Positions 29,635 to 64,000 of a stretch of DNA of 64,000 bases are shown in pieces (position 1 is the first letter of the stretch; each line of letters starts with the position of its first letter). This DNA comes from Pseudomonadota bacterium (GTDB lineage: Bacteria > Pseudomonadota > Gammaproteobacteria > Burkholderiales > Rhodocyclaceae): contig JAGTRT010000015.1 of the NCBI GenBank assembly GCA_018261895.1, positions 1 to 64,000 of the forward strand, given 5' to 3'. The position numbers and the translations under genes were made by a program. The notes beneath the pieces were generated by a model. That model did no database searches, was not told the origin of the DNA, and was given only the letters and a program-made list of their open reading frames with translations.

Positions 29635-31471
<1,837 letters not shown>

Positions 31472-38828: not shown

Positions 38829-40898
38829 ATGACGACAGCGGGTGCGCCAGCCCCGGCTTCTCCGCCCATTCGCGCCTCCGAGGCGCTGCAGAAGAAGCTT
38901 GCCAAGATCGGCCTCCATCGCGAGGCCGATTTACTGGTGCATCTGCCGCTGCGCTACGAGGACGAAACGCGCATCACGCCGGTCAATCGGAGTTTTGGCA
39001 ACGATCCCGTGCAGGTCGAAGTCGTCGTCCATAGCAATGAAATCCAGTTCCGGCCGCGCCGGCAGATGATTGTCCGGGCGGCCGACGAGAGCGGCGAGAT
39101 CACGCTGCGCTTTTTCAGTTTTTATCCGAATCAACAGGCGGCGCTCAGTGAAGGTTCGCGCATCCGGGCGTTTGGCGAAGTGCGTGGCGGCTTTTTCGGC
39201 GCCGAGATGGTGCACCCGCGTTTCCGCAAGGTCGGTGACGACGAACCGCTGCCTTCGGAGTTGACGCCGATTTACCCGTCGACTGCCGGATTGGCCAATT
39301 CGGCGCTGCAAAAGCTGATCGGCAAGGCCTTGGTGGCGGGCGATCTGTCTGAAACCCTACCCGAAGCGCTGCGCCAGCGCCTGAAACTGCCGGGGCTGGC
39401 GCGCAGCCTGCGTTTTTTGCACACGCCGCCACCCGGCACCGATCTCGATACCCTGCACGCCCGCAACCACCCTGCCTGGCGGCGTGTGAAATTCGATGAG
39501 GTGCTGGCGCAGCAACTGTCGTTGCGCCGCGCTTATCTGGCGCGTCGCGAACAGGGGGCGCCGGTGTTGGTTGCCCGTGATGATCTCGGGGCGAGGCTGC
39601 TCGACAGCCTGCCCTTCGGCCTGACCGGCGCGCAGGTGCGGGCGATGGCCGAGATCGGCGCCGATCTGGCGCAGCCTTATCCGATGCAACGCCTGCTGCA
39701 GGGCGATGTCGGCGCCGGCAAGACCATCGTCGCCGCCTTGGCGGCGTGTCAGGCCATTTCGGCCGGCTGGCAGGCGGCTTTCATGGCGCCGACGGAAATT
39801 CTTGCCGAGCAGCACTATCTGAAATTGAAGGACTGGCTGGAACCGTTGGGCATTCGTGTCGCCTGGCTGTCCGGCAGCCTGAAAACAAAGGCCAAGCGCG
39901 AGCAGCTGGCGGCAACGGCGGCCGAGGCGCAGTTGGTTGTCGGTACGCATGCGCTGATCCAGGATGGCGTCGACTTCGCCAAACTGGGGCTGGCCATCGT
40001 CGATGAGCAGCACCGCTTTGGCGTCGCCCAGCGGCTGGCCTTGCGCAAGAAGGGCGACAACCCGCATCAGCTCATGATGTCGGCGACGCCGATTCCGCGC
40101 ACGCTGGCCATGAGTTATTACGCCGACCTCGACGTGACGGTGCTCGATGAGCTGCCGCCCGGCCGGACGCCGATCAAGACGCGCCTGGTCGCCGACAATC
40201 GGCGCGACGATGTGGTCGGGTTCGTGAAGAAGCACGTCGAGGAGGGCCGGCAGGCCTACTGGGTCTGCCCGCTGATCGAGGAATCGGAAGCCTTGCAGTT
40301 GCAGACGGCGCAGGAAACCTACGAGTCGCTGGTCGAGCGGTTTTCCGATTTTGGGCAAAATTTCCGGTTGACCGTGGGATTGGTGCATGGCCGCCTGAAA
40401 GCCGACGAAAAACAGGCCGTGATGGCCGCTTTCGCCGCTGGCGAGATCGATGTGCTGGTGGCGACGACGGTCATCGAAGTCGGCGTTGATGTGCCCAACG
40501 CCAGCCTCATGGTCATCGAGCACGCCGAGCGTTTCGGCCTGTCGCAATTGCACCAGCTACGGGGGCGGGTCGGGCGCGGGAAATACGAGTCGAGTTGCAT
40601 CCTGATTTACGCCGGGCCGCTCGGCGAGGTGGCGCGCCAGCGTCTCAAGATCATTTTCGAGAACACCGATGGTTTCGAGATTGCCCGCCAGGACTTGCAG
40701 ATTCGTGGTCCGGGCGAGTTCGTCGGCGCGCGGCAGAGCGGCGTGCCGCTACTGCGCTACGCCGATCTGGAAATGGATGCCGATCTGGTCGAGATGGCGC
40801 GGGATGTGGCCGAGGAAATGTTGACCGAGCACGCCGAACTGGCGGAAAAGCACCTGCAGCGCTGGTTGGGTTCGCGCGAGGAGCTGCTCAAGTCCTGA
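38829..40898 (+). CDS. recG: ATP-dependent DNA helicase RecG
   Basis: The 689-residue helicase reverses stalled forks and branch-migrates junctions. It shows an N-terminal wedge/OB domain, Walker A LLQGDVGAGKTIVA, DEQH box IVDEQHRFG, MSATPIPRT, and the C-terminal helicase motifs GLVHGR, ATTVIEVGVDVPNAS and QLHQLRGRVGRG. Before GLVHGR it has extra residues (SDFGQNFRLTV) compared with E. coli RecG, coded by a copy of the dispersed repeat. Its stop overlaps the convergent LysR gene by 11 bases. Confidence 0.96.
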   Translation: MTTAGAPAPASPPIRASEALQKKLAKIGLHREADLLVHLPLRYEDETRITPVNRSFGNDPVQVEVVVHSNEIQFRPRRQMIVRAADESGEITLRFFSFYPNQQAALSEGSRIRAFGEVRGGFFGAEMVHPRFRKVGDDEPLPSELTPIYPSTAGLANSALQKLIGKALVAGDLSETLPEALRQRLKLPGLARSLRFLHTPPPGTDLDTLHARNHPAWRRVKFDEVLAQQLSLRRAYLARREQGAPVLVARDDLGARLLDSLPFGLTGAQVRAMAEIGADLAQPYPMQRLLQGDVGAGKTIVAALAACQAISAGWQAAFMAPTEILAEQHYLKLKDWLEPLGIRVAWLSGSLKTKAKREQLAATAAEAQLVVGTHALIQDGVDFAKLGLAIVDEQHRFGVAQRLALRKKGDNPHQLMMSATPIPRTLAMSYYADLDVTVLDELPPGRTPIKTRLVADNRRDDVVGFVKKHVEEGRQAYWVCPLIEESEALQLQTAQETYESLVERFSDFGQNFRLTVGLVHGRLKADEKQAVMAAFAAGEIDVLVATTVIEVGVDVPNASLMVIEHAERFGLSQLHQLRGRVGRGKYESSCILIYAGPLGEVARQRLKIIFENTDGFEIARQDLQIRGPGEFVGARQSGVPLLRYADLEMDADLVEMARDVAEEMLTEHAELAEKHLQRWLGSREELLKS
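40345..40381 (-). repeat. dispersed repeat copy B, inside recG
   Basis: CCGATTTTGGGCAAAATTTCCGGTTGACCGTGGGATT is the reverse orientation of the window's dispersed repeat. It is read in frame as DFGQNFRLTVG just ahead of the GLVHGR helicase motif, where E. coli RecG is about five residues shorter. Confidence 0.8.
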
Positions 40899-54338: not shown

Positions 54339-54376
54339 TTGACGAATACATGTCGATATAACTAAGATTATCGACA
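54339..54376 (+). promoter_or_regulatory. ArsR promoter and operator, overlapping the start codon
   Basis: TTGACG (54339-54344) and TAAGAT (54363-54368) are 18 bases apart. A perfect 8-bp inverted repeat, TGTCGATA (54351-54358) and TATCGACA (54369-54376), flanks the -10 region and ends at the A of the ATG at 54376. No ribosome binding site fits, so a leaderless message is likely. Binding by the encoded ArsR protein is inferred. Confidence 0.65.
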
Positions 54377-54687
54377 TGAAATCTGACTATTCCCAAACCA
54401 TCCCCGCCGAGTGGCAGGCCATGTCGAAAATTTTCGTGGCCTTGGGCGACGAGCATCGCCAGCGCATCCTGCTGCTGTTCGAGCCGGGCGAGCGACTCAA
54501 TGTCGGGCAGATCGCCGAGGTATCCACGCTGGCGCGCTCGACCGTTTCCCATCACCTCAAGATCCTGCATGAATCGGGCGTGCTGGCTTCCGAGAAGATC
54601 GGCAAGGAAGTCTGGTTCTGGATCAACCGCGATGCGTTGGCGGTCACCTTCACCAACGTGCTCGATTACCTCAAGGAAAGTTGCTGA
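54376..54687 (+). CDS. ArsR-family winged-helix regulator
   Basis: The 103-residue repressor has a winged helix with the recognition part STLARSTVSHHLKILHESGVLASEKIGKEVWFWI. No CxC or other cysteine metal site of the arsenic type is present; the only cysteine is the last residue. A non-metal ligand or a different site is therefore likely. It starts within its own probable operator and overlaps the acyltransferase gene, so it probably governs the whole downstream operon. Confidence 0.9.
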   Translation: MKSDYSQTIPAEWQAMSKIFVALGDEHRQRILLLFEPGERLNVGQIAEVSTLARSTVSHHLKILHESGVLASEKIGKEVWFWINRDALAVTFTNVLDYLKESC

Positions 54688-56828
54688 TGCGCAAGATTTT
54701 GCGGCCGCTGTTGCGCGGCCTTGCCCGCCTGCTGTTTCGCGTTGAAATTCCCGCCAGCCAGGCCGATTTCGATCATGAACGCCTGCTCGTCGTCGCCAAC
54801 CACGAGTCCTTTCTCGACGGCTTGCTGGTTGGCCTGTTCCTGCCCATCGACCCGGTTTTCGTCGTCCATACGACCATCGCCGAGAGTTTCTTCTTCCGCA
54901 TCCTGCTCTCGCAGGTCGATTATCTGGCGGTCGATCCGACTAGCCCGATGGCGATGAAGAAGGTCATCCGACTGATCGAATCCGGTCGCCCGGTGGTCAT
55001 CTTCCCGGAAGGGCGCATCACGCTGACCGGGTCGCTCATGAAGGTGTACGATGGCCCGGCCTTCGTCGCCGCCAAGACCGGTGCGACGGTGGTGCCAGTG
55101 CGCCTCGACGGTGCGTCGCGCAGCTATTTCTCGCGCCTGTCCGGTCGTCATCCGAAGGCGCTGTTCCCGAAGATTCGCCTGAGCATCCTGCCCGAGCGCC
55201 ATTTTCCGATGCCCGAGGCGCCGACCGCCAAGCTGCGTCGCCGCAAGTCCGGCGAGGCCATGCGCCGGCTGATGCAGGAAATGATCTTCGCCTCCCGTCC
55301 GCAGCAGACGCTGTTTGCCGCGCTGTGCGATGCGGTGGATATTTTTGGCCGCCGCCGTCGCCTGCTCGAAGACGTCAAGCAGATCGAGTATTCCTACAAC
55401 GACCTGCTCAAGATGGCGCTCATGCTCGGTCGCCAGGTAGAGCGCCTGACGGCGCCGGACGAGCGCGTCGGCCTGCTGCTGCCCAACCTCGTGCCGACGC
55501 TGGGTCTGATCTTCGGTCTCACGGCACGCCGTCGCATCCCGGCCATGCTCAACTACACGGCCGGCGTCGAGGCCATGCAGGCAGCGGTCGATGCGGCCGA
55601 ACTGAAGACCATCGTGACCTCGCGCGCCTTCGTCGAGCAGGCCAAGCTCGGCGACAAGCTGGCCGGCCTGCGCGGCGTGCAGCTCGTCTATCTCGAAGAC
55701 GTGCGCGAAAAGATCGGCCTCGGCGACAAGCTGTGGCTGATGGCCTACGCGCTGCACTTCCCGCGCGCCTTCGAACTGCCCAATTCGCCCGAAGCTGCGG
55801 CGGTCGTGCTCTTCACCTCGGGTTCCGAAGGCAAGCCGAAGGGCGTCGTCCTGCCGCACCGCGCCATCCTCGCCAACATCGCGCAGATTCGCTCGGTCAT
55901 CGACTTCTCGGTCTACGACAAGGTGCTCAATGCGCTGCCCATTTTCCACAGCTTCGGCCTGACGGCGGGGGCGCTGCTGCCGGTGCTGTCCGGCGCCAGC
56001 CTGTTCCTCTACCCGTCGCCGCTGCATTACCGCGTGATCCCAGAGCTGGCATACGACCGGGGCTGCACCATCCTGTTCGGCACCTCGACCTTCCTCGCCA
56101 ACTACGCCAAGTTCGCCAATCCCTACGACTTCTATCGCCTGCGCTACGTCGTGGCCGGCGCCGAGAAGCTGTCGGAATCGGTGCGCAGCCAGTGGTTCGA
56201 GAAATTCGGCCTGCGCATTTTCGAAGGCTACGGCGCGACCGAAACGGCGCCGGTGCTCGCCGTCAACACGCCGATGGCCTACCGGACCGGCACCGTCGGC
56301 AACCTGCTGCCCGGCCTCGAAGCCAAGCTCGTCCCGGTGCCGGGCATCGACAACGGCGGCATCCTGCACGTGCGCGGGCCCAACGTCATGGCCGGCTACC
56401 TCAAGGCCGACAAGCCCGGCGTGCTGCAACCGCCGGTCTCGGATGCCGGCGAGGGCTGGTACGAAACCGGCGACGTCGTCGAGTTCGACGAGGATGGCTT
56501 CGTGAAGATCGTCGGCCGCGTCAAACGCTTCGCCAAGATCGCCGGCGAAATGGTCAGCCTCGAAGTCGTCGAGAAGCTCGCCACCGCCACCTCGCCCGCG
56601 CTCATGCACGCCGCCTCCAGCCAGCCCGACCCGGCCAAGGGCGAGGCGCTGGTGCTGTTCACCACCGACGGCGAACTGAGTCGCGAACTGCTCGCCGCCA
56701 AGGCCCGCGAAACCGGCGTGCCGGAACTGGCCGTGCCGCGCAAGATCCACAAGGTCGACTCGCTGCCGCTGCTCGGCACCGGCAAGGTCGATTACGTGAC
56801 GCTGAAACGACTGGCCGAGGCGGTATGA
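54687..56828 (+). CDS. Aas-like acyltransferase / acyl-acyl-carrier-protein ligase fusion
   Basis: The 713-residue protein has an N-terminal PlsC domain (about 15-190; NHESFLDG, FPEGRIT) and a C-terminal AMP-binding acyl ligase (about 215-710; LFTSGSEGKPKGVVLPHR, YGATETAPV, YETGDVVEFDEDGF, GTGKVDYVTLKR). This is the plan of E. coli Aas, which re-acylates lysophospholipids. The ATG at 54687 overlaps the arsR stop. In E. coli, aas lies beside the lysophospholipid flippase lplT. Here an LplT-like/PlsC fusion gene lies two genes downstream. Confidence 0.9.
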   Translation: MRKILRPLLRGLARLLFRVEIPASQADFDHERLLVVANHESFLDGLLVGLFLPIDPVFVVHTTIAESFFFRILLSQVDYLAVDPTSPMAMKKVIRLIESGRPVVIFPEGRITLTGSLMKVYDGPAFVAAKTGATVVPVRLDGASRSYFSRLSGRHPKALFPKIRLSILPERHFPMPEAPTAKLRRRKSGEAMRRLMQEMIFASRPQQTLFAALCDAVDIFGRRRRLLEDVKQIEYSYNDLLKMALMLGRQVERLTAPDERVGLLLPNLVPTLGLIFGLTARRRIPAMLNYTAGVEAMQAAVDAAELKTIVTSRAFVEQAKLGDKLAGLRGVQLVYLEDVREKIGLGDKLWLMAYALHFPRAFELPNSPEAAAVVLFTSGSEGKPKGVVLPHRAILANIAQIRSVIDFSVYDKVLNALPIFHSFGLTAGALLPVLSGASLFLYPSPLHYRVIPELAYDRGCTILFGTSTFLANYAKFANPYDFYRLRYVVAGAEKLSESVRSQWFEKFGLRIFEGYGATETAPVLAVNTPMAYRTGTVGNLLPGLEAKLVPVPGIDNGGILHVRGPNVMAGYLKADKPGVLQPPVSDAGEGWYETGDVVEFDEDGFVKIVGRVKRFAKIAGEMVSLEVVEKLATATSPALMHAASSQPDPAKGEALVLFTTDGELSRELLAAKARETGVPELAVPRKIHKVDSLPLLGTGKVDYVTLKRLAEAV

Positions 56829-56841
56829 GCCCGCTTTTTCC

Positions 56842-56883
56842 AGATTCCCACGGTCAACCGGAAAAAATGCCCAAAAATGAAAT
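56842..56883 (+). repeat. dispersed repeat copy D, overlapping the hydrolase start
   Basis: AGATTCCCACGGTCAACCGG followed by AAAAAATGCCCAAAAATGAAAT lies between an ATG at 56825 that overlaps the Aas-like stop and the likely true start at 56882. Its last bases include that ATG. Confidence 0.85.
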
Positions 56884-58111
56884 GTCTGACCGGGGGCGGC
56901 GCCGCTTTCTCGGCTGGCTGGCCGGTGGTGCCGCGCTGGCAGCCGGTGGCACGGCGCTGGCCAAGCCGCTGCTGGTCAACAAGTGCCGCGTCGCCATCCC
57001 GGCCGGCCTGATCAATAGCCTGTGGCTCAAGCAGGCGTGGGCCGGCATCGACCCGGCGCAGTTGTGGGACTGCCACGTCCATCTGGCCGGCATCGGCGAT
57101 GGTGGCAGCGGCATCGTTGTCGGGCCGCAACTGTCATCGCCCCTGCATCCGCTGCACTACGCCCAGCGCCTGTTCTACATGAACGCCGGCTGCGCCCACG
57201 ATGCGCCGGGCAAGGTCGATCAGGCCTACGTCGCCCGCCTGCTCAACCTGTGCGACGCGATGCCGGACGGCTTCAAGGTCATGCTTTTCGCCTTCGAACG
57301 CTTTCACGACGGCAAGGGCGACGCCCATCCCGAGCATTCGGCCTTCTACGTGCCGAACGCCTGGGCGGCCAAGCTGGCCAGGGATTTCCCGGCGCGTTTC
57401 GAGTGGGTCGCCTCGCTGCACCCTTACCACGCTGGGGCGGCCGACGATCTCAAGCTGGCCATCACCAACGGCGCGCGCGCCGTCAAATGGCTGCCGGCGG
57501 CGATGGGCATGGACCCGGCCGATGCCAAATGCGACGCCTTCTATCGCGTGCTGGCCGAGACCGGCACGCCGCTCATCGTCCATTGCGGTGAGGAAAAAGC
57601 CGTCAAGGGCAGCGACACGCAGGCCTTCGGCAACCCGCTGCGCCTGCGCCGGGCACTCGATGCCGGGGTCAAGGTCGTTGTCGCCCATTGCGCCTCGCTC
57701 GGCGACGATGTCGACGATGACGGCAAGGTACGATCCAGTTTCGACCTCTTCCTCAAACTCATGGCCGAACCGCGCGCCAAGGGGCTGCTCTACGGCGACA
57801 TCTCGGCCATCACCCAGCGCAACCGCAAACCGGCCCTGATCCGCACGCTGCTTGAACGCAGCGACCTGCACGAGCGCCTGGTGCACGGCTCCGACTATCC
57901 GCTGCCCGGTATCGTGCCGCTGACCTCGACCTCCGCCCTGGCCAAGGCCGGCCTGCTGCCGAAAGCGGCGGTCAACGATCTCGATATCCTGCGCCAGCAC
58001 AACCCGCTGCTCTTCGATTTCACCCTCAAGCGCCTGCTCAACTGGCATGGCCATTCCTTTTCACCGGCGGTTTTCAACACCCGCCGACTTTTCGCTGCGA
58101 GCCACGCATGA
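56882..58111 (+). CDS. Tat-exported amidohydrolase-type metal hydrolase
   Basis: The 409-residue protein begins with a twin-arginine signal (SDRGRRRFLGWLAGGAALAAGG) and is a TIM-barrel hydrolase of the amidohydrolase-2 type (DCHVHLAG, LIVHCGEE, VVVAHCAS, HGSDYPLPG), with the metal-binding His and Asp residues in place. The ATG at 56882 gives the best Tat signal. A frame opens at 56825 through a repeat copy that would add about 19 residues. Substrate unknown. Its stop overlaps the next gene (ATGA). Confidence 0.8.
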   Translation: MSDRGRRRFLGWLAGGAALAAGGTALAKPLLVNKCRVAIPAGLINSLWLKQAWAGIDPAQLWDCHVHLAGIGDGGSGIVVGPQLSSPLHPLHYAQRLFYMNAGCAHDAPGKVDQAYVARLLNLCDAMPDGFKVMLFAFERFHDGKGDAHPEHSAFYVPNAWAAKLARDFPARFEWVASLHPYHAGAADDLKLAITNGARAVKWLPAAMGMDPADAKCDAFYRVLAETGTPLIVHCGEEKAVKGSDTQAFGNPLRLRRALDAGVKVVVAHCASLGDDVDDDGKVRSSFDLFLKLMAEPRAKGLLYGDISAITQRNRKPALIRTLLERSDLHERLVHGSDYPLPGIVPLTSTSALAKAGLLPKAAVNDLDILRQHNPLLFDFTLKRLLNWHGHSFSPAVFNTRRLFAASHA

Positions 58112-59988
58112 GCGGTCAATTCGGACTCCTGAAAACAAAGCGCTTCGCGCCATTCTTCGCCACCCAGTTTCTCGGCGCCTTCAATGACAACCTGTTCAAG
58201 AATGCGTTGGTCGTGTTGCTGACCTTCCAGGCGGCGAAATGGACGACGCTGAAGCCGGAACTGCTGGCCAACCTGGCGGCGGGGATTTTCATCCTGCCTT
58301 TCTTCCTGTTTTCGGCGACGGCCGGGCAACTGGCGGACAAGTACGACAAGGCGACGCTGGCGCGGCTGGTCAAGGTGCTGGAGATGGCGATCATGGGGGT
58401 CGCGGCGGCCGGCTTCTTCCTGGTCAGCCTGCCCGTGCTGATGTTTGCGCTGTTCCTGCTCGGCTGCCATTCGACGCTGTTCGGGCCGGTCAAGTACGCG
58501 ATCATGCCGCAGCATCTGCAGCCCGATGAACTGGTCGGCGGCAATGCGCTGATCGAGGCCGGCACCTTCGTCGCTATCCTCATCGGCACGCTGGCCGGCG
58601 GGCTGCTTGCCGGGTCGGTCGAGCATCCAGCGTGGATCGCCATGGGCGGCTTCGTCGTCGCGCTGGCCGGCTACCTGACCAGCCGGGGCATTCCGACGGC
58701 ACCGCCGCCGGCGCCGGAACTCAAGGTCAATCTCAACCCGCTGTCGGAAACCTGGCGCAACATCGCCTTCGCCCGGCAGAACCGCACGGTGTTTCTGTCC
58801 ATCCTCGGCATCTCGTGGTTCTGGCTCTACGGCGCGCTCTTCCTCGCCCAGTTCCCGGCCTATGCCAAGAACGTGCTGGGTGGTGGCGAGTCGTCGGTGA
58901 CCTTGCTGCTTGCCGTGTTTACGGTCGGCATCGGCATCGGCTCGATGCTCTGCGAGCGGATGTCGGGCAAGCATGTCGAAATCGGCCTGGTGCCCTTCGG
59001 GTCCATCGGCCTGACGCTGTTCGGCCTCGATCTCTATGCTGCCTCGCCGGAGAACCTGGCCGGCACCACGGCCCACGAACTGCTCGCGCTGCTCAGCCTG
59101 CCGGCCGTCTGGCACGTGTTGTTCGACCTCATGATGCTCGGCGTCTTCGGCGGCTTCTTCATCGTGCCACTCTATGCGCTCGTCCAGTTGCGCAGTTCCA
59201 ACGAACACCGGGCGCGCATCATCGCCGCCAACAACATCCTCAACGCGCTGTTCATGGTCGTCGGTGCGCTGGGCGCGGCGTCACTGCTCGAAGCCGGGCT
59301 GAGCATTCCCGAGCTGTTCGGGTTGGCCGCGCTGCTCAACGCCGGCGTGGCGATCTACATCTACGGGCTGGTGCCGGAATTCCTGCTGCGCTTCATCGCC
59401 TGGCTGCTCGTCAAGGCCGTCTATCGCCTGCGCATTAAGGGGCTGCACCATATCCCGATGGAAGGTCCGGCGGTGCTCGTCGCCAACCATGTCAGCTTCG
59501 CCGACGCCGTCGTCATCATGGGCGCCTCGCCGCGGCCGATCCGCTTCGTCATGGATTACCGCATCTTCAAGACGCCGCTGCTCGGCTTCATCTTCCGCCA
59601 TTGCGGCGCCATCCCCATCGCCTCGGCCAAGGAAGACCCGGCGATGATGGAGCGCGCCTTTGCCGAGGTCGACAAGGCGCTGGCGGCCGGCGACCTGGTC
59701 GGCATCTTCCCGGAAGGCCACATCACCAAGGACGGCGAATTGCAGCCCTTCCGGCCGGGCATCACGCGCATCCTCGACGCCAACCCGGTACCCGTCGTGC
59801 CCATGGCGTTGTCCGGCCTTTGGGGCAGCTTCTTCTCGCGGGTCGATGGCAACGCCATGCAGCGGCCGTTCCGGCGCGGCCTGTTTTCGGATATTGCGCT
59901 GACGGTTGGCGAGCCTGTGCCGGCCAACGAGGCGACGCCGGAAACGCTGCAGAAAATGGTGCTGGCTTTGCGTGGGGAGGTCCGGTGA
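58108..59988 (+). CDS. LplT-like MFS transporter fused to a PlsC acyltransferase
   Basis: The 626-residue protein has an N-terminal MFS domain (about 1-415; FFATQFLGAFNDNLFKNALVV is the LplT-type start) and a C-terminal PlsC acyltransferase (about 425-620; NHVSFADA, FPEGHIT). In E. coli LplT flips lysophospholipids inward for re-acylation by Aas. Here the flippase carries its own acyltransferase. Overlaps both neighbours by four bases, so the operon is probably translationally coupled. Confidence 0.9.
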   Translation: MSGQFGLLKTKRFAPFFATQFLGAFNDNLFKNALVVLLTFQAAKWTTLKPELLANLAAGIFILPFFLFSATAGQLADKYDKATLARLVKVLEMAIMGVAAAGFFLVSLPVLMFALFLLGCHSTLFGPVKYAIMPQHLQPDELVGGNALIEAGTFVAILIGTLAGGLLAGSVEHPAWIAMGGFVVALAGYLTSRGIPTAPPPAPELKVNLNPLSETWRNIAFARQNRTVFLSILGISWFWLYGALFLAQFPAYAKNVLGGGESSVTLLLAVFTVGIGIGSMLCERMSGKHVEIGLVPFGSIGLTLFGLDLYAASPENLAGTTAHELLALLSLPAVWHVLFDLMMLGVFGGFFIVPLYALVQLRSSNEHRARIIAANNILNALFMVVGALGAASLLEAGLSIPELFGLAALLNAGVAIYIYGLVPEFLLRFIAWLLVKAVYRLRIKGLHHIPMEGPAVLVANHVSFADAVVIMGASPRPIRFVMDYRIFKTPLLGFIFRHCGAIPIASAKEDPAMMERAFAEVDKALAAGDLVGIFPEGHITKDGELQPFRPGITRILDANPVPVVPMALSGLWGSFFSRVDGNAMQRPFRRGLFSDIALTVGEPVPANEATPETLQKMVLALRGEVR

Positions 59989-60350
59989 ACGGGCCGGCGG
60001 CAGACGAGCACGAGACCGAGGGGCTGAGCAGCCCGGCGGCCGATGATCGCCATGCGCACATGTCCGAAGCGTCGACGTCTCCACAACCGGAGACCCAGCG
60101 ACGCTCGCCGCTGGTTACGGTGGTCGTATGGATTTACCGATTGATTGTGTTGGGTTTCGGTCTTCTACTCGTCATGGGTGGCGGTGTGTTGGGCCTCTGC
60201 GGCGCCAATGGCCGGGGGAATGACTGGATACTCATCGTCATCGGCCTCGTGCCGCTGGCTTTGGGTGGCTTACTGATCGTGAGCCTGTTCAAGACGAACC
60301 GTAAAGTGGACCGGGCTCAATCGACGCGTCTTCCGAAGGATGGCGCTTAG
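59985..60350 (+). CDS. two-helix membrane protein, family member 1
   Basis: The 121-residue product has a disordered acidic/Ser/Pro start (about 1-45) and two helices (about 50-72 and 84-104) separated by GGGVLGLCGANG. The GTG at 59985 overlaps the upstream stop and has GGGGAGG before it. An ATG at 60060 is also possible. It resembles the products of 60414-60707 and 61459-61680 in layout and in the GG...LCG motif. No known family. Confidence 0.7.
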   Translation: MNGPAADEHETEGLSSPAADDRHAHMSEASTSPQPETQRRSPLVTVVVWIYRLIVLGFGLLLVMGGGVLGLCGANGRGNDWILIVIGLVPLALGGLLIVSLFKTNRKVDRAQSTRLPKDGA

Positions 60351-60356
60351 GATGGC

Positions 60357-60399
60357 GGATTTCAATTTTGGGCCTTTTTTCCGGTTGACCGTGAGATTC
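60357..60399 (-). repeat. dispersed repeat copy E, in an operon junction
   Basis: CGGATTTCAATTTTGGGCC, then TTTTTTCCGGTTGACCGTGAGATTCG, is the reverse-orientation form of the repeat. It occupies most of the only sizeable gap (63 bases) among the second half of the operon genes. Confidence 0.88.
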
Positions 60400-60413
60400 G
60401 GGGGCGCGGGCTC

Positions 60414-60707
60414 ATGAGGCTCCTGGCGTCCCTGCTCAAGGTCGTGCTGCTCATCGTCGGCTTCGTGATCATCGCCGGCGGCACCCTCGGCAGCCTGTGC
60501 GGCATGCTGAACATGGATGTGGGCGTGACCCTCGGCGGCGCGCTGGTGGCCTTGTTTGGCGTCGGTTTGTACATGGTCGTGAACAAGGCGCTTGGCGATT
60601 CCCGGGCGGAAGCGGCGGAAAACTACGCCGAGCTGGTGGCGCGTCACGACGCTTCCCTGGCGCAGGCGCCCGAGCGTCAAGACGATGCGGGCGGCAGCGG
60701 ATCATGA
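60414..60707 (+). CDS. two-helix membrane protein, family member 2
   Basis: The 97-residue product has two helices (about 4-26 and 34-57) separated by GGTLGSLCGMLN, then a charged soluble tail (about 58-97, KALGDSRAEAAENYAELVARHD). It shares the GG...LCG motif and topology of the two other small proteins in this operon. Function unknown. Its stop overlaps the Lgt-like start (ATGA). Confidence 0.7.
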   Translation: MRLLASLLKVVLLIVGFVIIAGGTLGSLCGMLNMDVGVTLGGALVALFGVGLYMVVNKALGDSRAEAAENYAELVARHDASLAQAPERQDDAGGSGS

Positions 60708-61462
60708 TTCCGGCTGAACACGCCGCCCTCGTCCACGGCCTCTTCGAAGCCGCGGCGCTGGCCATCGGCGCCGCGCTGTACCGCGTCAACAAGCGCCGGG
60801 CCGGCGGGCCGGGCATTCTGGCGCCGGGGGAATTCGCCGTGGCGGTTGGTTGCGTTTTCGGGGCGGCCATTGGCAACAAGGTCGTGTTCTGGATCGAGCT
60901 GCCGCATCTGTTCATGCAGTACTGGCCAACGCCGGCCGTGCTGTTCGGCGGGCAGTCGATGGTCGGTGGGCTGCTCGGCGGCCTGATCGGCGTCGAGATC
61001 GCCAAGAAGCTGACCGGCATCACGCGTTCGACCGGCGACGCCTTTGTCATGCCGGTGCTGCTCGGGCTGGCCATCGGGCGGGTCGGCTGCTTCCTGGCCG
61101 GGCTGGAGGATGGCACCTTCGGGGTGGCGACCGAGCTGCCGTGGGGCATCGATTTTGGCGACGGTATCCGCCGGCATCCGACCCAGCTCTACGAAATCGC
61201 CTTCGCCGGCCTCCTGGCCTGGGCGCTGGCGCACTGGCGCGAGCGCCTGGCCGACCGTCCCGGCCTGTCGTTCAAGCTCATGGTCGTCGCCTACCTGGCC
61301 TGGCGCCTGGCGGTCGATGGCATCAAGCCGGTGCCGTATGTTTATCCGCTGGGCCTGTCGGGCATCCAGTGGGTGTGTCTGCTGGCCTTGATGGCCTATT
61401 TGCCGGCCACCGTCCGCCTGTGGGCGGCGCAACCCGGCCTTCCGGAAGGGAATAAAGCATGA
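60704..61462 (+). CDS. Lgt-like membrane protein (prolipoprotein diacylglyceryl transferase family)
   Basis: The 252-residue polytopic protein matches Lgt in FGGQSMVGGLLGG, GRVGCFLAGLEDGTFG and RRHPTQLYE. The FHGG histidine important in E. coli Lgt is replaced (SMVGG), and the usual GRIGNFINGE reads GRVGCFLAGL. The enzyme therefore probably transfers a diacylglyceryl or related group to something other than a prolipoprotein cysteine, or acts on another lipid. Overlaps both neighbours by four bases. Confidence 0.85.
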   Translation: MIPAEHAALVHGLFEAAALAIGAALYRVNKRRAGGPGILAPGEFAVAVGCVFGAAIGNKVVFWIELPHLFMQYWPTPAVLFGGQSMVGGLLGGLIGVEIAKKLTGITRSTGDAFVMPVLLGLAIGRVGCFLAGLEDGTFGVATELPWGIDFGDGIRRHPTQLYEIAFAGLLAWALAHWRERLADRPGLSFKLMVVAYLAWRLAVDGIKPVPYVYPLGLSGIQWVCLLALMAYLPATVRLWAAQPGLPEGNKA

Positions 61463-61680
61463 TGGATGTGTTGAAGGTGCTCGTTCGGATTTGTCTGATC
61501 GGTATCGGCTTGTTGTCGATTGCCGCTGGCGGCTTGTGCACGGCCGTCGGCGCAACCCAGGGGCTGGATGCCTGGTGGATCGTATCGATCGGCCTCGTCT
61601 CGCTCATCGGCGGCGGCGCCCTCATTCGTTACATTTTCCGAAAATGGAAGCGTGAAATGGCAGAAGAGGAAAACCCATGA
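61459..61680 (+). CDS. two-helix membrane protein, family member 3
   Basis: The 73-residue product has two helices (about 6-28 and 38-58) with AAGGLCTAVGATQG between them and a basic end (FRKWKREMAEEENP). It resembles the other two small proteins of this operon. The ATG at 61459 overlaps the Lgt-like stop and its own stop overlaps the radical SAM start. Unknown function. Confidence 0.7.
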   Translation: MMDVLKVLVRICLIGIGLLSIAAGGLCTAVGATQGLDAWWIVSIGLVSLIGGGALIRYIFRKWKREMAEEENP

Positions 61681-63137
61681 GCCGCAAGAACCGTCCCTGG
61701 CTGTTCTACGACACCACCGCGTCGGTGTGCGGCACCTGTTTCCGCCAGGTCGAGGCCAAGATCGTCATCAAGGGTAACGACGTCTATCTCGACAAATGGT
61801 GCCCGGCGCACGGCAGCGAGCGTGTGCTGATCGCCGACGATGCCGAGTATTACCGACTATGCCGGGAGGTCTACGTCAAGTCGCCGGAAATGCCGGACCG
61901 CTTCAACACCGCCATGCACTACGGCTGCCCCTACGACTGCGGCCTGTGCCCGGACCACATGCAGCACTCCTGCCTGACCGTGGTCGAGGTCACCGAGCAC
62001 TGCAACCTGCGCTGCCCCGTGTGCTACGCCGAATCCGGCCCGGAGCGCCAGCGCCATCGGACGCTGGCCGAGATCGAGGCGATGTTCGACGCCATCGTCG
62101 CCAACGAGGGCGAGCCGGATGTCGTGCAACTTTCCGGCGGCGAGCCGACCTTGCACCCGGACTTCTTCGCCATCCTCGACGCCGCCCGGGCGCGGCCCAT
62201 CCGCCACCTGATGATCAACACCAACGGCCTGCGCCTCGCTCGCGAGCCGGATTTCGTGGCTCGGCTGGCCAGCTACAAGCCGGGCATCGAGATCTACCTG
62301 CAGTTCGATTCGCTGCGCGACGAGGTGCTGCAGCAACTGCGCGGCGCCGACCTCGCCGAGATCCATGAGCGAGCACTCGCCAACCTGGAGGCGCACGGCC
62401 TGTCGACGACGCTGGTCATGACCGTCAAGCGCGGCATCAACGACGACCACATTGGCGAGGTGATCCAGCACGGCCTCGGTTACCGCTGCGTGCGCGGCGT
62501 GACCCTGCAGCCGGTGTCGGATGTGGGGCGCAACCTGGCCTTCGAGTCGCAGCGCCACCGGCTGACGGTGAGCGAAGTGCGCCGCCGCATTGCCGAACAG
62601 TCCGGCCTGTTCACCCTCGACGACATCGTGCCCGTGCCCTGCAATCCGGACACCCTGGCCATGGGCTACGCCCTCAAGCTGGGCGGCGAGACCCTGCCGC
62701 TGACCCGCCACCTCGGGCCGGAAGCCCTGCTCGCCGGCCAGCGCAACACCATCGTCTTCGAACGCGACCCGATGATGAAGGACGCCGTGTTCAAGCTCTT
62801 CTCCACCAACCACTCGCCGGAATCGCAGGCCAACTGCCTGTCGGCGCTGCTCTGCTGCCTGCCCACCATCTCGGCGCCGGAACTCGGCTACGAAAACGTC
62901 TTCCGCGTTCTCATCGTCCAGTTCATGGACGCCGCCAACCTCGACCTGCGGGCGCTCAAGAAATCCTGCGTCCACTTCGCCCAACCCGACGGCCGCCTGA
63001 TTCCCTTCGAGGCCTTCAACCTGTTCTACCGTGGCGACGCGCTGGCCCGCACGCAAGCCATCCAAGCCGAAATCGAACAGGCGATCACCTGGCGGCGGCG
63101 CGTGCCGGGGGCGGTGGCGGAAATCGACGAAAGCTAG
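61677..63137 (+). CDS. radical SAM enzyme of the MJ0619/Tes (tetraether lipid synthase)-like family
   Basis: The 486-residue protein has an N-terminal rubredoxin-like part (C18-x2-C21, then CPAHG at 42-46), a second cysteine group GCPYDCGLCPDH (C84, C88, C91) with C99, and the radical SAM cluster CNLRCPVCYA (C109, C113, C116), followed by SGGEPTLHPD and LMINTNGLRL. This cysteine pattern is that of archaeal MJ0619/Tes, which joins lipid chains. Several cysteines lie near the end (ANCLSALLCC). Gene context with acyltransferases and an Lgt-like protein supports a lipid substrate. The exact reaction is not shown by sequence. Confidence 0.88.
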   Translation: MSRKNRPWLFYDTTASVCGTCFRQVEAKIVIKGNDVYLDKWCPAHGSERVLIADDAEYYRLCREVYVKSPEMPDRFNTAMHYGCPYDCGLCPDHMQHSCLTVVEVTEHCNLRCPVCYAESGPERQRHRTLAEIEAMFDAIVANEGEPDVVQLSGGEPTLHPDFFAILDAARARPIRHLMINTNGLRLAREPDFVARLASYKPGIEIYLQFDSLRDEVLQQLRGADLAEIHERALANLEAHGLSTTLVMTVKRGINDDHIGEVIQHGLGYRCVRGVTLQPVSDVGRNLAFESQRHRLTVSEVRRRIAEQSGLFTLDDIVPVPCNPDTLAMGYALKLGGETLPLTRHLGPEALLAGQRNTIVFERDPMMKDAVFKLFSTNHSPESQANCLSALLCCLPTISAPELGYENVFRVLIVQFMDAANLDLRALKKSCVHFAQPDGRLIPFEAFNLFYRGDALARTQAIQAEIEQAITWRRRVPGAVAEIDES

Positions 63138-63141
63138 GCCG

Positions 63142-63471
63142 ATGGGCTTCGGCCAATGGATGGACGAGTACGGCTCGACGATCCAGCTCGTCGGCATCGT
63201 GCTCGCCGTTGGCTACTCGGTCATGGCCAGGCGCAAGGTCAATGGCCGGCGCGAACGCCCCGAGCCGAGCGCCGCCAGGTTTTTTCTGTACCTGATCGCC
63301 GCCGTGGTCTGCAGCGGCATCGCCTGGTTCTGCTTCCAGTACCTGCGTGACCACCACGGCGATTACGCCAACTACCTGATGATCATCGGCCTGTTAGCCA
63401 GCCTGCCGTTTGCCGCCGGGTTTTTGCTCGGTGCGTTGCTCGAAGGGCTGCGCGTCGTTCTTCGGCGCTGA
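63142..63471 (+). CDS. small membrane protein at the end of the operon
   Basis: The 109-residue product has about three helices (residues 13-29, 46-66 and 78-100) and a basic loop (RRKVNGRRERPEP). It starts four bases after the radical SAM stop and is probably cotranscribed. I recognise no family. The convergent minus-strand gene ends inside its 3' part (78-base overlap). Confidence 0.7.
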   Translation: MGFGQWMDEYGSTIQLVGIVLAVGYSVMARRKVNGRRERPEPSAARFFLYLIAAVVCSGIAWFCFQYLRDHHGDYANYLMIIGLLASLPFAAGFLLGALLEGLRVVLRR

Positions 63472-64000
63472 GGGCGGTGTAGGCGGTGTCGGCGGGGCCG
63501 GTGGCGTGACCGCGGGGGCGGCCGGGGTTACCGGGGCGGGCGGGCTGACGCTGGCGGGCGGCGTTTCCGGTTGCGCCGGTGGCGTGCTGGGCGTTGGGGT
63601 GACTGCCGCCGGTTTCTCGGGCGCCTTTTCCGGGGCTTTCTCCGGGGCTTTCTCGGCGGGCGTTTCCGCCGGCGCAGCTGCGGCTGCCGGTGCCTCGTCC
63701 TTCACCGTTTCAGGATTCTGATTTTCGTCGTTTTTTCCGGTTGACCGTGAGATTGGCGCTTCGGTCTTGGCCGGCCAGCCACCGGGACAGGCCTTGTCGT
63801 TCTGGGCGTCAAGAACCGGCGTCAGGATGCCGCCCATGCTCTTCAGGATCTGCACCGGCAGGGCCGAGGTGAAGCGGTACTTGGCGGCATCCGGGCCCAT
63901 GACGTAGGCGGTGAGCGTGCCGAAGTGGCGTGGGCCGAGGTAGAAGACGAAGGTGGCGGTGCGGTTCATGGCCACGCCGCGCCCGGCGCCCTTGCCGAGG
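63394..64000 (-). CDS. partial gene, product with a Pro/Ala/Glu-rich tail
   Basis: The frame is open through the window edge, so the N-terminus is missing. The visible part has GKGAGRGVAMNRTATFVFYLG, then GPDAAKYRFTSALPVQILKSMGGILTPVLD, and a low-complexity tail with repeated AEKAPEK / PEKAPEK units and many Pro residues. A dispersed-repeat copy lies within the coding sequence. I do not recognise the family. The 3' end overlaps the last gene of the lipid operon. Confidence 0.6.
   Translation of the reverse strand, partial: LGKGAGRGVAMNRTATFVFYLGPRHFGTLTAYVMGPDAAKYRFTSALPVQILKSMGGILTPVLDAQNDKACPGGWPAKTEAPISRSTGKNDENQNPETVKDEAPAAAAAPAETPAEKAPEKAPEKAPEKPAAVTPTPSTPPAQPETPPASVSPPAPVTPAAPAVTPPAPPTPPTPPSAPKNDAQPFEQRTEQKPGGKRQAG
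63717..63756 (-). repeat. dispersed repeat copy F
   Basis: TCTGATTTTCGTCGTTTTTTCC, then GGTTGACCGTGAGATTGG, is the reverse orientation of the repeat, with the CCGGTTGACCGTGAGATT core identical to copy E. It lies within the partial minus-strand gene, between its folded part and the Pro-rich tail. Confidence 0.8.

What the first reader, a model, noticed from the sequence alone, without database searches (positions are those of the whole stretch)
54339..63471. Candidate undescribed lipid-remodelling operon with a tetraether-synthase-like radical SAM enzyme
Seen: one tight operon encodes an ArsR regulator, an Aas-like acyltransferase/ligase, a Tat-exported hydrolase, an LplT-like flippase fused to PlsC, an Lgt-like protein, a radical SAM enzyme with the MJ0619/Tes cysteine layout, and four small membrane proteins, mostly with 4-base overlaps. 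Known: Aas and LplT recycle lysophospholipids, Lgt transfers diacylglyceryl groups, and Tes couples lipid chains in archaea. Inferred: lysolipids are taken in, re-acylated, and modified by headgroup transfer and radical C-C bond formation, giving a linked or otherwise unusual membrane lipid in a betaproteobacterium.
Basis: partly seen in the sequence, partly recalled or inferred. Interest (0 to 1): 0.87.

Follow-up and report, generated by a model that had tools for sequence, protein, structure and literature searches.

The report
Lipid-transferase, radical-enzyme and tiny membrane-protein module
The operon carries a widely conserved, apparently undescribed three-part set, a relative of the lipoprotein lipid transferase, a radical enzyme with the fold of the archaeal membrane-spanning-lipid synthase, and tiny membrane proteins with one fixed cysteine, which looks like a dedicated way of attaching or altering a lipid on those small proteins.

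Summary
The specific unit is three-part: (1) small two-helix membrane proteins with Gly-x-Cys at the end of the first helix, (2) an Lgt-fold protein distinct from housekeeping Lgt, (3) a Tes-fold radical SAM enzyme. Orthologues of (2) and (3) occur in the same 11 of 249 family genomes and in none of the other 238. (2) lies within 2 kb of (3) in 76 of 80 loci from a genome scan (3 of these weakly similar and on the other strand), and also in Bacteroidota and Actinomycetota. Good matches to (1) were found only at these loci; its Cys is in 48 of 49 aligned rows at 22% median identity. LplT-PlsC is generic (173 of 249 genomes) and near 31 of 80 loci, Aas near 14. Best reading: the Lgt-like enzyme puts a diacylglyceryl group on that Cys, and the radical SAM enzyme acts on the lipidated protein or its lipid. 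No step is shown biochemically. The radical SAM enzyme is not Tes: it misses the Tes cut-off and lacks Tes-conserved residues near the C-terminal cluster. I found no description of this set in the papers searchable here.

The parts
54344..54383 (.). Inverted repeat (15-nt arms, 10-nt spacer) over the ArsR start: candidate ArsR operator
   Evidence: 87% complementary arms 54344-54358 / 54369-54383; operator role inferred
54376..54687 (+). ArsR/SmtB-type regulator, 103 aa
   Evidence: NF033788 59.5 bits, cut-off 55; PF01022. In 12 of 80 loci
54687..56828 (+). Aas-like acyl-ACP synthetase / lysophospholipid acyltransferase; optional partner
   Evidence: NF005959 999.3 bits, cut-off 886; PF00501, PF01553. 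In 14 of 80 loci
56825..58111 (+). Exported (twin-arginine-like N-terminus) amidohydrolase-2 family protein; start may be 56868; optional partner
   Evidence: PF04909 E 2e-13; in 14 of 80 loci; Tat signal read by eye
58108..59988 (+). LplT-like lysophospholipid flippase fused to PlsC; generic partner
   Evidence: in 173 of 249 family genomes; upstream of the Lgt-like gene in 31 of 80 loci
60060..60350 (+). Small TM protein m1 (96 aa), GGGVLGLCG with Cys47 at end of first helix
   Evidence: HMM match at 60120-60338, E 1.9e-14 (this row is part of the model)
60414..60707 (+). Small TM protein m2 (97 aa), GGTLGSLCG with Cys29; overlaps the Lgt-like gene
   Evidence: row is part of the model
60704..61462 (+). 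Lgt-like membrane protein (252 aa): Lgt fold and part of its catalytic residues, distinct from housekeeping Lgt
   Evidence: PF01790 78.4 bits, cut-off 24.9; TIGR00544 32 of 118.9 bits; model pLDDT 91.6; only PDB match with E <= 0.001 is E. coli Lgt 5azb, E 8.8e-6; residues
61459..61680 (+). Small TM protein m3 (73 aa), AAGGLCT with Cys27; overlaps the Lgt-like and radical SAM genes
   Evidence: E 4.9e-18; row is part of the model
61677..63137 (+). Tes-fold radical SAM enzyme (486 aa) with rubredoxin-type site, N-terminal auxiliary cluster site and altered C-terminal cluster region
   Evidence: model pLDDT 86.2; 7tom E 1.4e-37, next other protein 8.6e-10; tree; residues
63142..63471 (+). Small membrane protein m4, lineage-specific, not part of the core
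   Evidence: matched only in L048 and L053 of 80 loci

Best explanation
A three-part module for modifying small membrane proteins. Small proteins (about 70-120 aa) insert with a basic N-terminus inside, and the first helix ends on the outer face with Gly-hydrophobic-Cys-Gly. The Lgt-like enzyme, which keeps most residues that hold the diacylglyceryl donor near the reaction centre of Lgt, transfers a diacylglyceryl (or similar lipid) group to that Cys. Because the residue before Cys is usually bulky (L/V/I in 39 of 48) rather than G/A/S, signal peptidase II probably does not cut, so the product would be an uncleaved, lipid-anchored membrane protein. The Tes-fold radical SAM enzyme then does radical C-H chemistry on that lipidated protein, most likely on its acyl chain. 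Where Aas and LplT-PlsC lie alongside, they recycle lysophospholipid made in or around this process. Shown: the module, its conservation, the co-occurrence of its parts, the predicted folds, the kept residues and the near-invariant Cys. Inferred: topology, lipid transfer to Cys, lack of cleavage, and the radical SAM substrate and reaction.
For: Co-occurrence in 249 family genomes: radical SAM orthologue (74-100% id) in 11, Lgt-like orthologue (59-100%) in the same 11 and no other, Fisher p 2e-19 (genomes are not independent). In a class-wide sample of 369 genomes the Lgt-like orthologue is in 4 (E <= 1e-35), all 4 with the radical SAM gene. Genome-wide scan: the Lgt-like gene is within 2 kb of the radical SAM gene in 76 of 80 loci: 73 on the same strand at 48-90% id, 3 myxobacterial on the opposite strand at 33-34%. 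Of the 4 without, 2 contigs begin 326 and 921 nt upstream and 2 have 10 kb upstream and none. The two genes overlap in 37 of 70 loci with a full Lgt-like gene. Far relatives keep the pair: Persicobacter 53% id, M. branderi, M. avium and Nonomuraea 31-36% id, and 8 of 10 class-sample matches. Small proteins: chosen blind to Cys, 45 of 47 have Cys at the end of helix 1, against 11 of 81 control ORFs, at least one of them itself a member; 48 of 49 in the alignment at 21.5% median identity, K/R 20 columns upstream in 96%. HMM over 249 genomes: all 14 hits at E <= 1.5e-6 lie at module loci, in 10 of the 11 module genomes. Actinobacterial neighbours end in a basic stretch, a helix and [AGV]-G-x-C-T-G-[LI]-N-P. 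Lgt-like R126, E/D164, Y197, R201, D/E205, K/R208 align with EcLgt R143, E202, Y235, R239, E243, R246. Housekeeping Lgt is separate in 10 of 11 module genomes, own included at 273.5 bits.
Against: No biochemistry. The motif is not a canonical lipobox. The HGGL His (V/I/M/L here), Asn146 (Cys129 in all 49 rows) and Glu151 (aligned with L134) of EcLgt are not kept, so donor selection or the reaction may differ; the pairwise alignment to EcLgt is weak by sequence (E 0.0083). The HMM search scored at most 22 first-look candidates per genome, and its model contains rows from 5 of the 11 module genomes. Seven further genomes gave hits at 2e-4 to 9e-4, taken as chance. Two Methylococcaceae loci (L067, L077) carry the radical SAM gene without a found Lgt-like gene; 2 of 10 class-sample matches have other partners; 9 paralogue neighbourhoods had none. 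The Cys could serve in a disulfide, metal site or helix packing. Nothing identifies the radical SAM substrate, and residues 373-400 of the model are poor.
Confidence: 0.45

Rival explanations
1. Membrane-lipid synthesis: the radical SAM enzyme couples or edits acyl chains of bulk phospholipids, the Lgt-like protein moves a headgroup or diacylglyceryl group between lipids, and the small proteins are scaffolds.
For: Full-length Tes fold; Tes N-terminal sites kept; Aas and LplT-PlsC beside a share of copies; sterol-desaturase/hydroxylase-like genes, read by eye, beside two myxobacterial copies. Bacterial Tes homologues were proposed for branched tetraethers (PMC8941075, passages seen).
Against: Below the Tes cut-off, separate clade, Tes Met439 and Tyr459 and two aligned Cys lost, though M439A and Y459F/L Tes variants stay active (PMC9433317, section 7 and passages). 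Does not explain the near-invariant Cys of the small proteins or their restriction to the module. Many carriers are aerobes (recalled).
Confidence: 0.2
2. Peptide-maturation (RiPP-like) pathway: the radical SAM enzyme modifies the small protein itself in the cytoplasm, and the Lgt-like enzyme then lipidates it, as in lipidated RiPPs.
For: Architecture of precursor plus modifying enzymes, several paralogous precursors at some loci; a precedent without radical SAM, DAG-RiPPs (PMC12636315, passages seen).
Against: The conserved positions of the small proteins lie in and at the end of helix 1, predicted to face outside, and their ends vary. Best fold match is Tes, with peptide maturases far behind.
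Confidence: 0.2
3. The small proteins are not substrates but partners or regulators (Cys for a disulfide, metal site or helix packing) of an Lgt-like enzyme with another acceptor.
For: Non-canonical lipobox; invariant Cys129 in the Lgt-like active-site region could pair with the small-protein Cys; small proteins not found at some loci.
Against: The position (basic end, hydrophobic helix, Gly-x-Cys at the predicted outer face) is that of a lipoprotein signal, and the actinobacterial proteins place the same motif at a C-terminal helix, unlikely for a mere packing site.
Confidence: 0.13

Closest known systems
Tetraether lipid synthase Tes / GDGT-MAS (MJ0619, 7TOL/7TOM, NF045702)
   Same: Full-length predicted fold; spacing of the rubredoxin-type site, N-terminal auxiliary cluster and radical SAM cluster
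   Different: Below curated cut-off; own clade; Tes Met439 and Tyr459 and two aligned C-terminal Cys not kept, new Cys393-Cys394; genomic partners are Lgt-like and small proteins
TrsS radical SAM (seleno)protein family (NF045646)
   Same: Best-scoring curated family (334 bits)
   Different: Cut-off 490 not reached; no function given in what I saw. Relatives with a methyltransferase next door (L129; with a DUF547-type gene in L130, L131 and by eye L136, L137) showed no Lgt-like gene
Prolipoprotein diacylglyceryl transferase Lgt (TIGR00544, 5AZB)
   Same: Pfam family, fold, the two essential Arg and donor-pocket residues E202, Y235
   Different: 32 of 118.9 bits; HGGL His, Asn146 and Glu151 not kept; invariant Cys129 and His11; housekeeping Lgt present as well in 10 of 11 module genomes
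DAG-RiPPs (preprint PMC12636315, passages seen)
   Same: Small precursor, dedicated oxidative enzyme, diacylglyceryl on Cys
   Different: Those have canonical lipoboxes, use the ordinary lipoprotein pathway, and an MNIO enzyme rather than radical SAM
Aas / LplT lysophospholipid recycling (PMC11416262, passages seen)
   Same: Two upstream genes belong here; it recycles lyso-PE left by lipoprotein N-acylation
   Different: LplT-PlsC is generic in the family, not part of the specific module; LplT here is fused to PlsC

Membership tests
Tes (NF045702) | Curated whole-protein cut-off 450 bits | tested here: not met
   258.3 bits
Tes (NF045702) | Three metal-site layouts: rubredoxin-type, N cluster with His, radical SAM CxxxCxxC | tested here: met
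   C18/C21/C42/H45, C84/C88/C91/H94, C109/C113/C116 in 43 of 43 clade rows
Tes (NF045702) | Met439 and Tyr459 (stated fully conserved in 1000 archaeal homologues) and C-terminal cluster Cys | tested here: not met
   Aligned residues V414, F/M/I/L434, S430, E445; which Cys bind the cluster in Tes was not stated in the passages I read
Tes (NF045702) | Same overall fold | tested here: met
   predicted model against 7tom: E 1.4e-37, TMq 0.78
Tes (NF045702) | Couples lipid chain ends | not testable with these tools
   needs enzymology or lipidomics
TrsS (NF045646) | Curated cut-off 490 bits | tested here: not met
   334 bits
Lgt (TIGR00544) | Curated cut-off 118.9 bits | tested here: not met
   32 bits; 30.6 in the genome search
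Lgt fold family (PF01790) | Pfam gathering score 24.9 and fold of 5azb | tested here: met
   78.4 bits; E 8.8e-6, prob 1.00, TMq 0.58
Lgt (TIGR00544) | Essential Arg143 and Arg239 with donor pocket E202, Y235 | tested here: met
   R126, R201, E/D164, Y197 in 49 of 49 rows; numbering rests on a weak pairwise alignment
Lgt (TIGR00544) | HGGL motif and GRxGNFINGE signature | tested here: not met
   V/I/M/L in place of His, C129 for Asn146, L134 for Glu151
Bacterial lipoprotein precursor | Lipobox [LVI][ASTVI][GAS]C | tested here: not met
   Residue before Cys is L/V/I/F/T in 43 of 48, A in 5
Aas (NF005959) | Curated cut-off 886 bits | tested here: met
   999.3 bits

The most novel reading that the evidence does not exclude
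The Lgt-like enzyme anchors a diacylglyceryl group on the small-protein Cys at the outer face, and the Tes-fold radical enzyme, reaching the bilayer mid-plane, joins the end of that chain to a phospholipid chain of the inner leaflet. The result would be a protein held by a membrane-spanning (bola) lipid, a form of protein anchoring I know of in no organism (recalled, not searched).
Probability: 0.1. Interest if true: 0.95.

Novelty: categorically new. Interest (0 to 1): 0.78.

Why it matters
If right, this is a second, dedicated route of protein lipidation in bacteria, with its own transferase, its own tiny substrates and a radical enzyme for which no lipoprotein role was found in the papers searchable here. 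It also bears on an open question: bacterial Tes homologues are taken in surveys as possible signs of branched-tetraether lipid makers (PMC8941075, PMC11868695, passages seen). This clade has other fixed partners, so such counts may be misled where they include it. Named carriers in the scan (Methylococcus capsulatus, Dechloromonas hankyongensis, Roseateles, Collimonas) make it testable.

Tried and rejected
Rejected: (1) Aas, amidohydrolase and LplT-PlsC as core parts: LplT-PlsC is generic, and the three lie at 14, 14 and 31 of 80 loci; Aas and the amidohydrolase were not searched genome-wide. (2) The radical SAM enzyme as Tes proper. (3) m4 as a core part. (4) Chimeric contig: same order in L048. 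(5) Non-coding RNA or tRNA in the window: none at threshold. (6) Known family names for the small proteins: none above cut-off in Pfam or NCBIfam.

Led nowhere: paper searches joining Lgt, lipobox or lipoprotein with radical SAM or Tes: 578 papers held at least 2 terms, 15 listed; 0; 21, 8 listed; 5; 6; DUF547/Trs search, (0).

The tree warns of long branches (MJ0619 as two blocks only, L129, L128, L039, L047), so the order among deep clades is unsure; the 44-row window clade has support 100/99. Co-occurrence p-values ignore shared ancestry. The scan kept the best 80 of 123 relatives.
Full report
What is there. The window is part of a 3.3-Mb, 85% complete genome of the Dechloromonas/Azonexaceae kind, judged from its nearest radical SAM relatives (L048, L049, L055). 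The operon 54376-63471 is as described, with overlapping starts and stops and a candidate ArsR operator.

What is specific and what is generic. I searched the same 249 genomes of the family with three of the proteins. The radical SAM gene: 23 of 249 at E <= 1e-20, of which 11 (own included) are orthologues at 74-100% identity and 12 are paralogues at 29-41%; none of 7 other same-genus genomes has a match. The Lgt-like gene: 65 of 249 at E <= 1e-10, of which exactly the same 11 are orthologues (59-100%), while the other matches score like ordinary Lgt (29-38%). LplT-PlsC: 173 of 249 at E <= 1e-60, including all 7 same-genus genomes without the radical SAM gene. In 10 fetched neighbourhoods plus the window, the Lgt-like gene is within 2 kb of the radical SAM gene in 11 of 11; Aas and LplT-PlsC are close in 8 of 11; 9 paralogue neighbourhoods had no Lgt-like match.

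How far the pair goes. A scan of 84,980 species genomes with the alignment of 11 orthologues gave 123 relatives, of which the best 80 were kept. The Lgt-like gene is within 2 kb in 76 of 80: 73 same-strand at 48-90% identity, 3 in Myxococcota on the opposite strand at 33-34%. Of the 4 without, L054 and L081 begin 326 and 921 nt upstream of the radical SAM gene, and L067 and L077 have 10 kb upstream and none. Hosts include Dechloromonas, Zoogloea, Roseateles, Collimonas, Massilia, Undibacterium, Methylococcus capsulatus, Moraxella atlantae and Archangium. In plasmid records the pair also occurs in Persicobacter (Bacteroidota, 53%) and in Mycobacterium branderi, M. avium and Nonomuraea (31-36%), while haloarchaeal (L130, L131) and Mycolicibacterium vanbaalenii (L129) relatives have a methyltransferase instead. 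In a class-wide sample of 369 genomes, 10 (own included) have a match at E <= 1e-100; 8 of these have an adjacent Lgt-like gene, and 2 (G533, G426) have instead what look by eye like a DUF547-type gene and a methyltransferase. At the stricter orthologue threshold the Lgt-like gene was found in 4 of 369, all 4 among those 10; the other 4 came out on direct comparison of the fetched loci, where similarity is lower.

The third part. Directly upstream of the Lgt-like gene, often with a 4-nt overlap, lies a small two-helix protein. With a rule that ignores Cys, 47 of 69 loci had one; 45 of 47 have a Cys at the end of helix 1, against 11 of 81 small two-helix ORFs elsewhere in the same loci, at least one of those being another member. 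In the alignment of 49 (47 plus window m1 and m3) the Cys column is 98%; the one exception, L107, is a wrongly chosen ORF, and a member with VGGGVCGVC lies at the proper place. Median pairwise identity is 21.5%. The other fixed points are a K/R 20 columns before (96%), Gly 7 columns before (88%), Gly at -2 (86%) and Gly at +1 (76%). Charges suggest basic ends inside and the loop outside (mean K+R 1.7, 0.6, 2.6 for N-terminus, loop and tail, n = 48). A profile of this family over 249 genomes gave 14 hits at E <= 1.5e-6, all at module loci in 10 of 11 module genomes; 7 other genomes gave only hits of 2e-4 to 9e-4, which look like chance. At most 22 first-look candidates were scored per genome, and the model holds rows from 5 of these 11 genomes. 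Neighbours in M. branderi (151 and 118 aa), M. avium (94 and 97 aa) and Nonomuraea (368 aa, long proline-rich start) look unrelated but end in a helix followed by G-x-C; two small proteins at L140 end in a helix with G-C (by eye). Some loci also carry an ordinary-looking lipoprotein between the pair: a Sel1-type one in L107 (below the gathering score) and others judged by eye in L058 and L037.

The Lgt-like enzyme. Model pLDDT 91.6 from 45 sequences; E. coli Lgt is the only PDB match with E <= 0.001. Residues that hold the donor near the reaction centre in EcLgt (PMC4728403, passages seen) are kept: R126, E/D164, Y197, R201, D/E205, K/R208. The HGGL His, Asn146 and Glu151 are not; Asn146 is a Cys invariant in all 49 rows, and His11 is invariant too. 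The sequence alignment to EcLgt is weak (E 0.0083). Housekeeping Lgt is present separately in 10 of 11 module genomes.

The radical SAM enzyme. Best curated families are TrsS (334 of 490 bits) and Tes (258 of 450); closest solved sequence and fold are Tes. In a 61-row tree it sits in a 44-row clade (support 100/99) with the Pseudomonadota and Myxococcota rows and Persicobacter, nearly all Lgt-linked, apart from Tes, haloarchaeal and TrsS-like rows; the actinobacterial Lgt-linked rows form another clade. The N-terminal metal sites are those of Tes, but around the C-terminal cluster, which is proposed to hold the substrate radical in Tes (PMC9433317), 43 of 43 rows have V for Met439, S and E for two aligned Cys, and a Cys-Cys pair at 393-394. 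Chemistry like that of Tes can therefore be proposed but not assumed.

Mechanism. Most economical reading: a lipidation module for small membrane proteins, with radical editing of the attached lipid. Aas and LplT, which recycle the lyso-PE left by lipoprotein N-acylation in E. coli (PMC11416262, passages seen), fit as helpers: LplT-PlsC lies upstream on the same strand in 31 of 63 loci with at least 3.5 kb of upstream sequence. Rivals are bulk lipid coupling, RiPP-like maturation, and a non-substrate role for the small proteins.

Literature. Bacterial Tes homologues were noted before (456 in PMC8941075; a similarity network in PMC9433317; MAG surveys in PMC11868695) without this gene context in the passages I saw. 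Searches joining Lgt, lipobox or lipoprotein with radical SAM or Tes listed no paper on such a module; two searches listed only 15 of 578 and 8 of 21 papers, and only open-licence PMC papers are held, so absence from print is not proven.

Noticed in passing
window 31103-31124, 40360-40381, 56844-56865, 60377-60398, 63733-63754: A 21-22 nt sequence (TTTCCGGTTGACCGTGAGATT) occurs 5 times in the window (up to 3 mismatches) and 207 times in the genome with up to 2 mismatches (103 forward, 104 reverse; reversed control 0). Nature unknown; one copy overlaps the first codons of the amidohydrolase ORF.
   Followed up: partly
L130 and L131 (haloarchaeal plasmids), L136, L137, L129: Other relatives of the radical SAM family are linked instead to a methyltransferase and, except in L129, a DUF547-type gene (annotated in L130, L131; by eye in L136, L137): another unexplained set.
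   Followed up: partly
L039 8232-11164, L040 9957-14037: Two Tes-family radical SAM paralogues close together in two family genomes, in their own clade.
   Followed up: no
L099, L100, L125: In Myxococcota the Lgt-like gene is on the opposite strand to the radical SAM gene and, in L100 and L125 (read by eye), next to a sterol-desaturase/fatty-acid-hydroxylase-like gene.
   Followed up: no
L107 9090-10004, L058 9429-10004, L037 6881-8421: Lipoproteins with an ordinary-looking lipobox, Sel1-type in L107 (below the Pfam gathering score) and by eye in the others, lie between the Lgt-like and radical SAM genes in some loci.
   Followed up: partly
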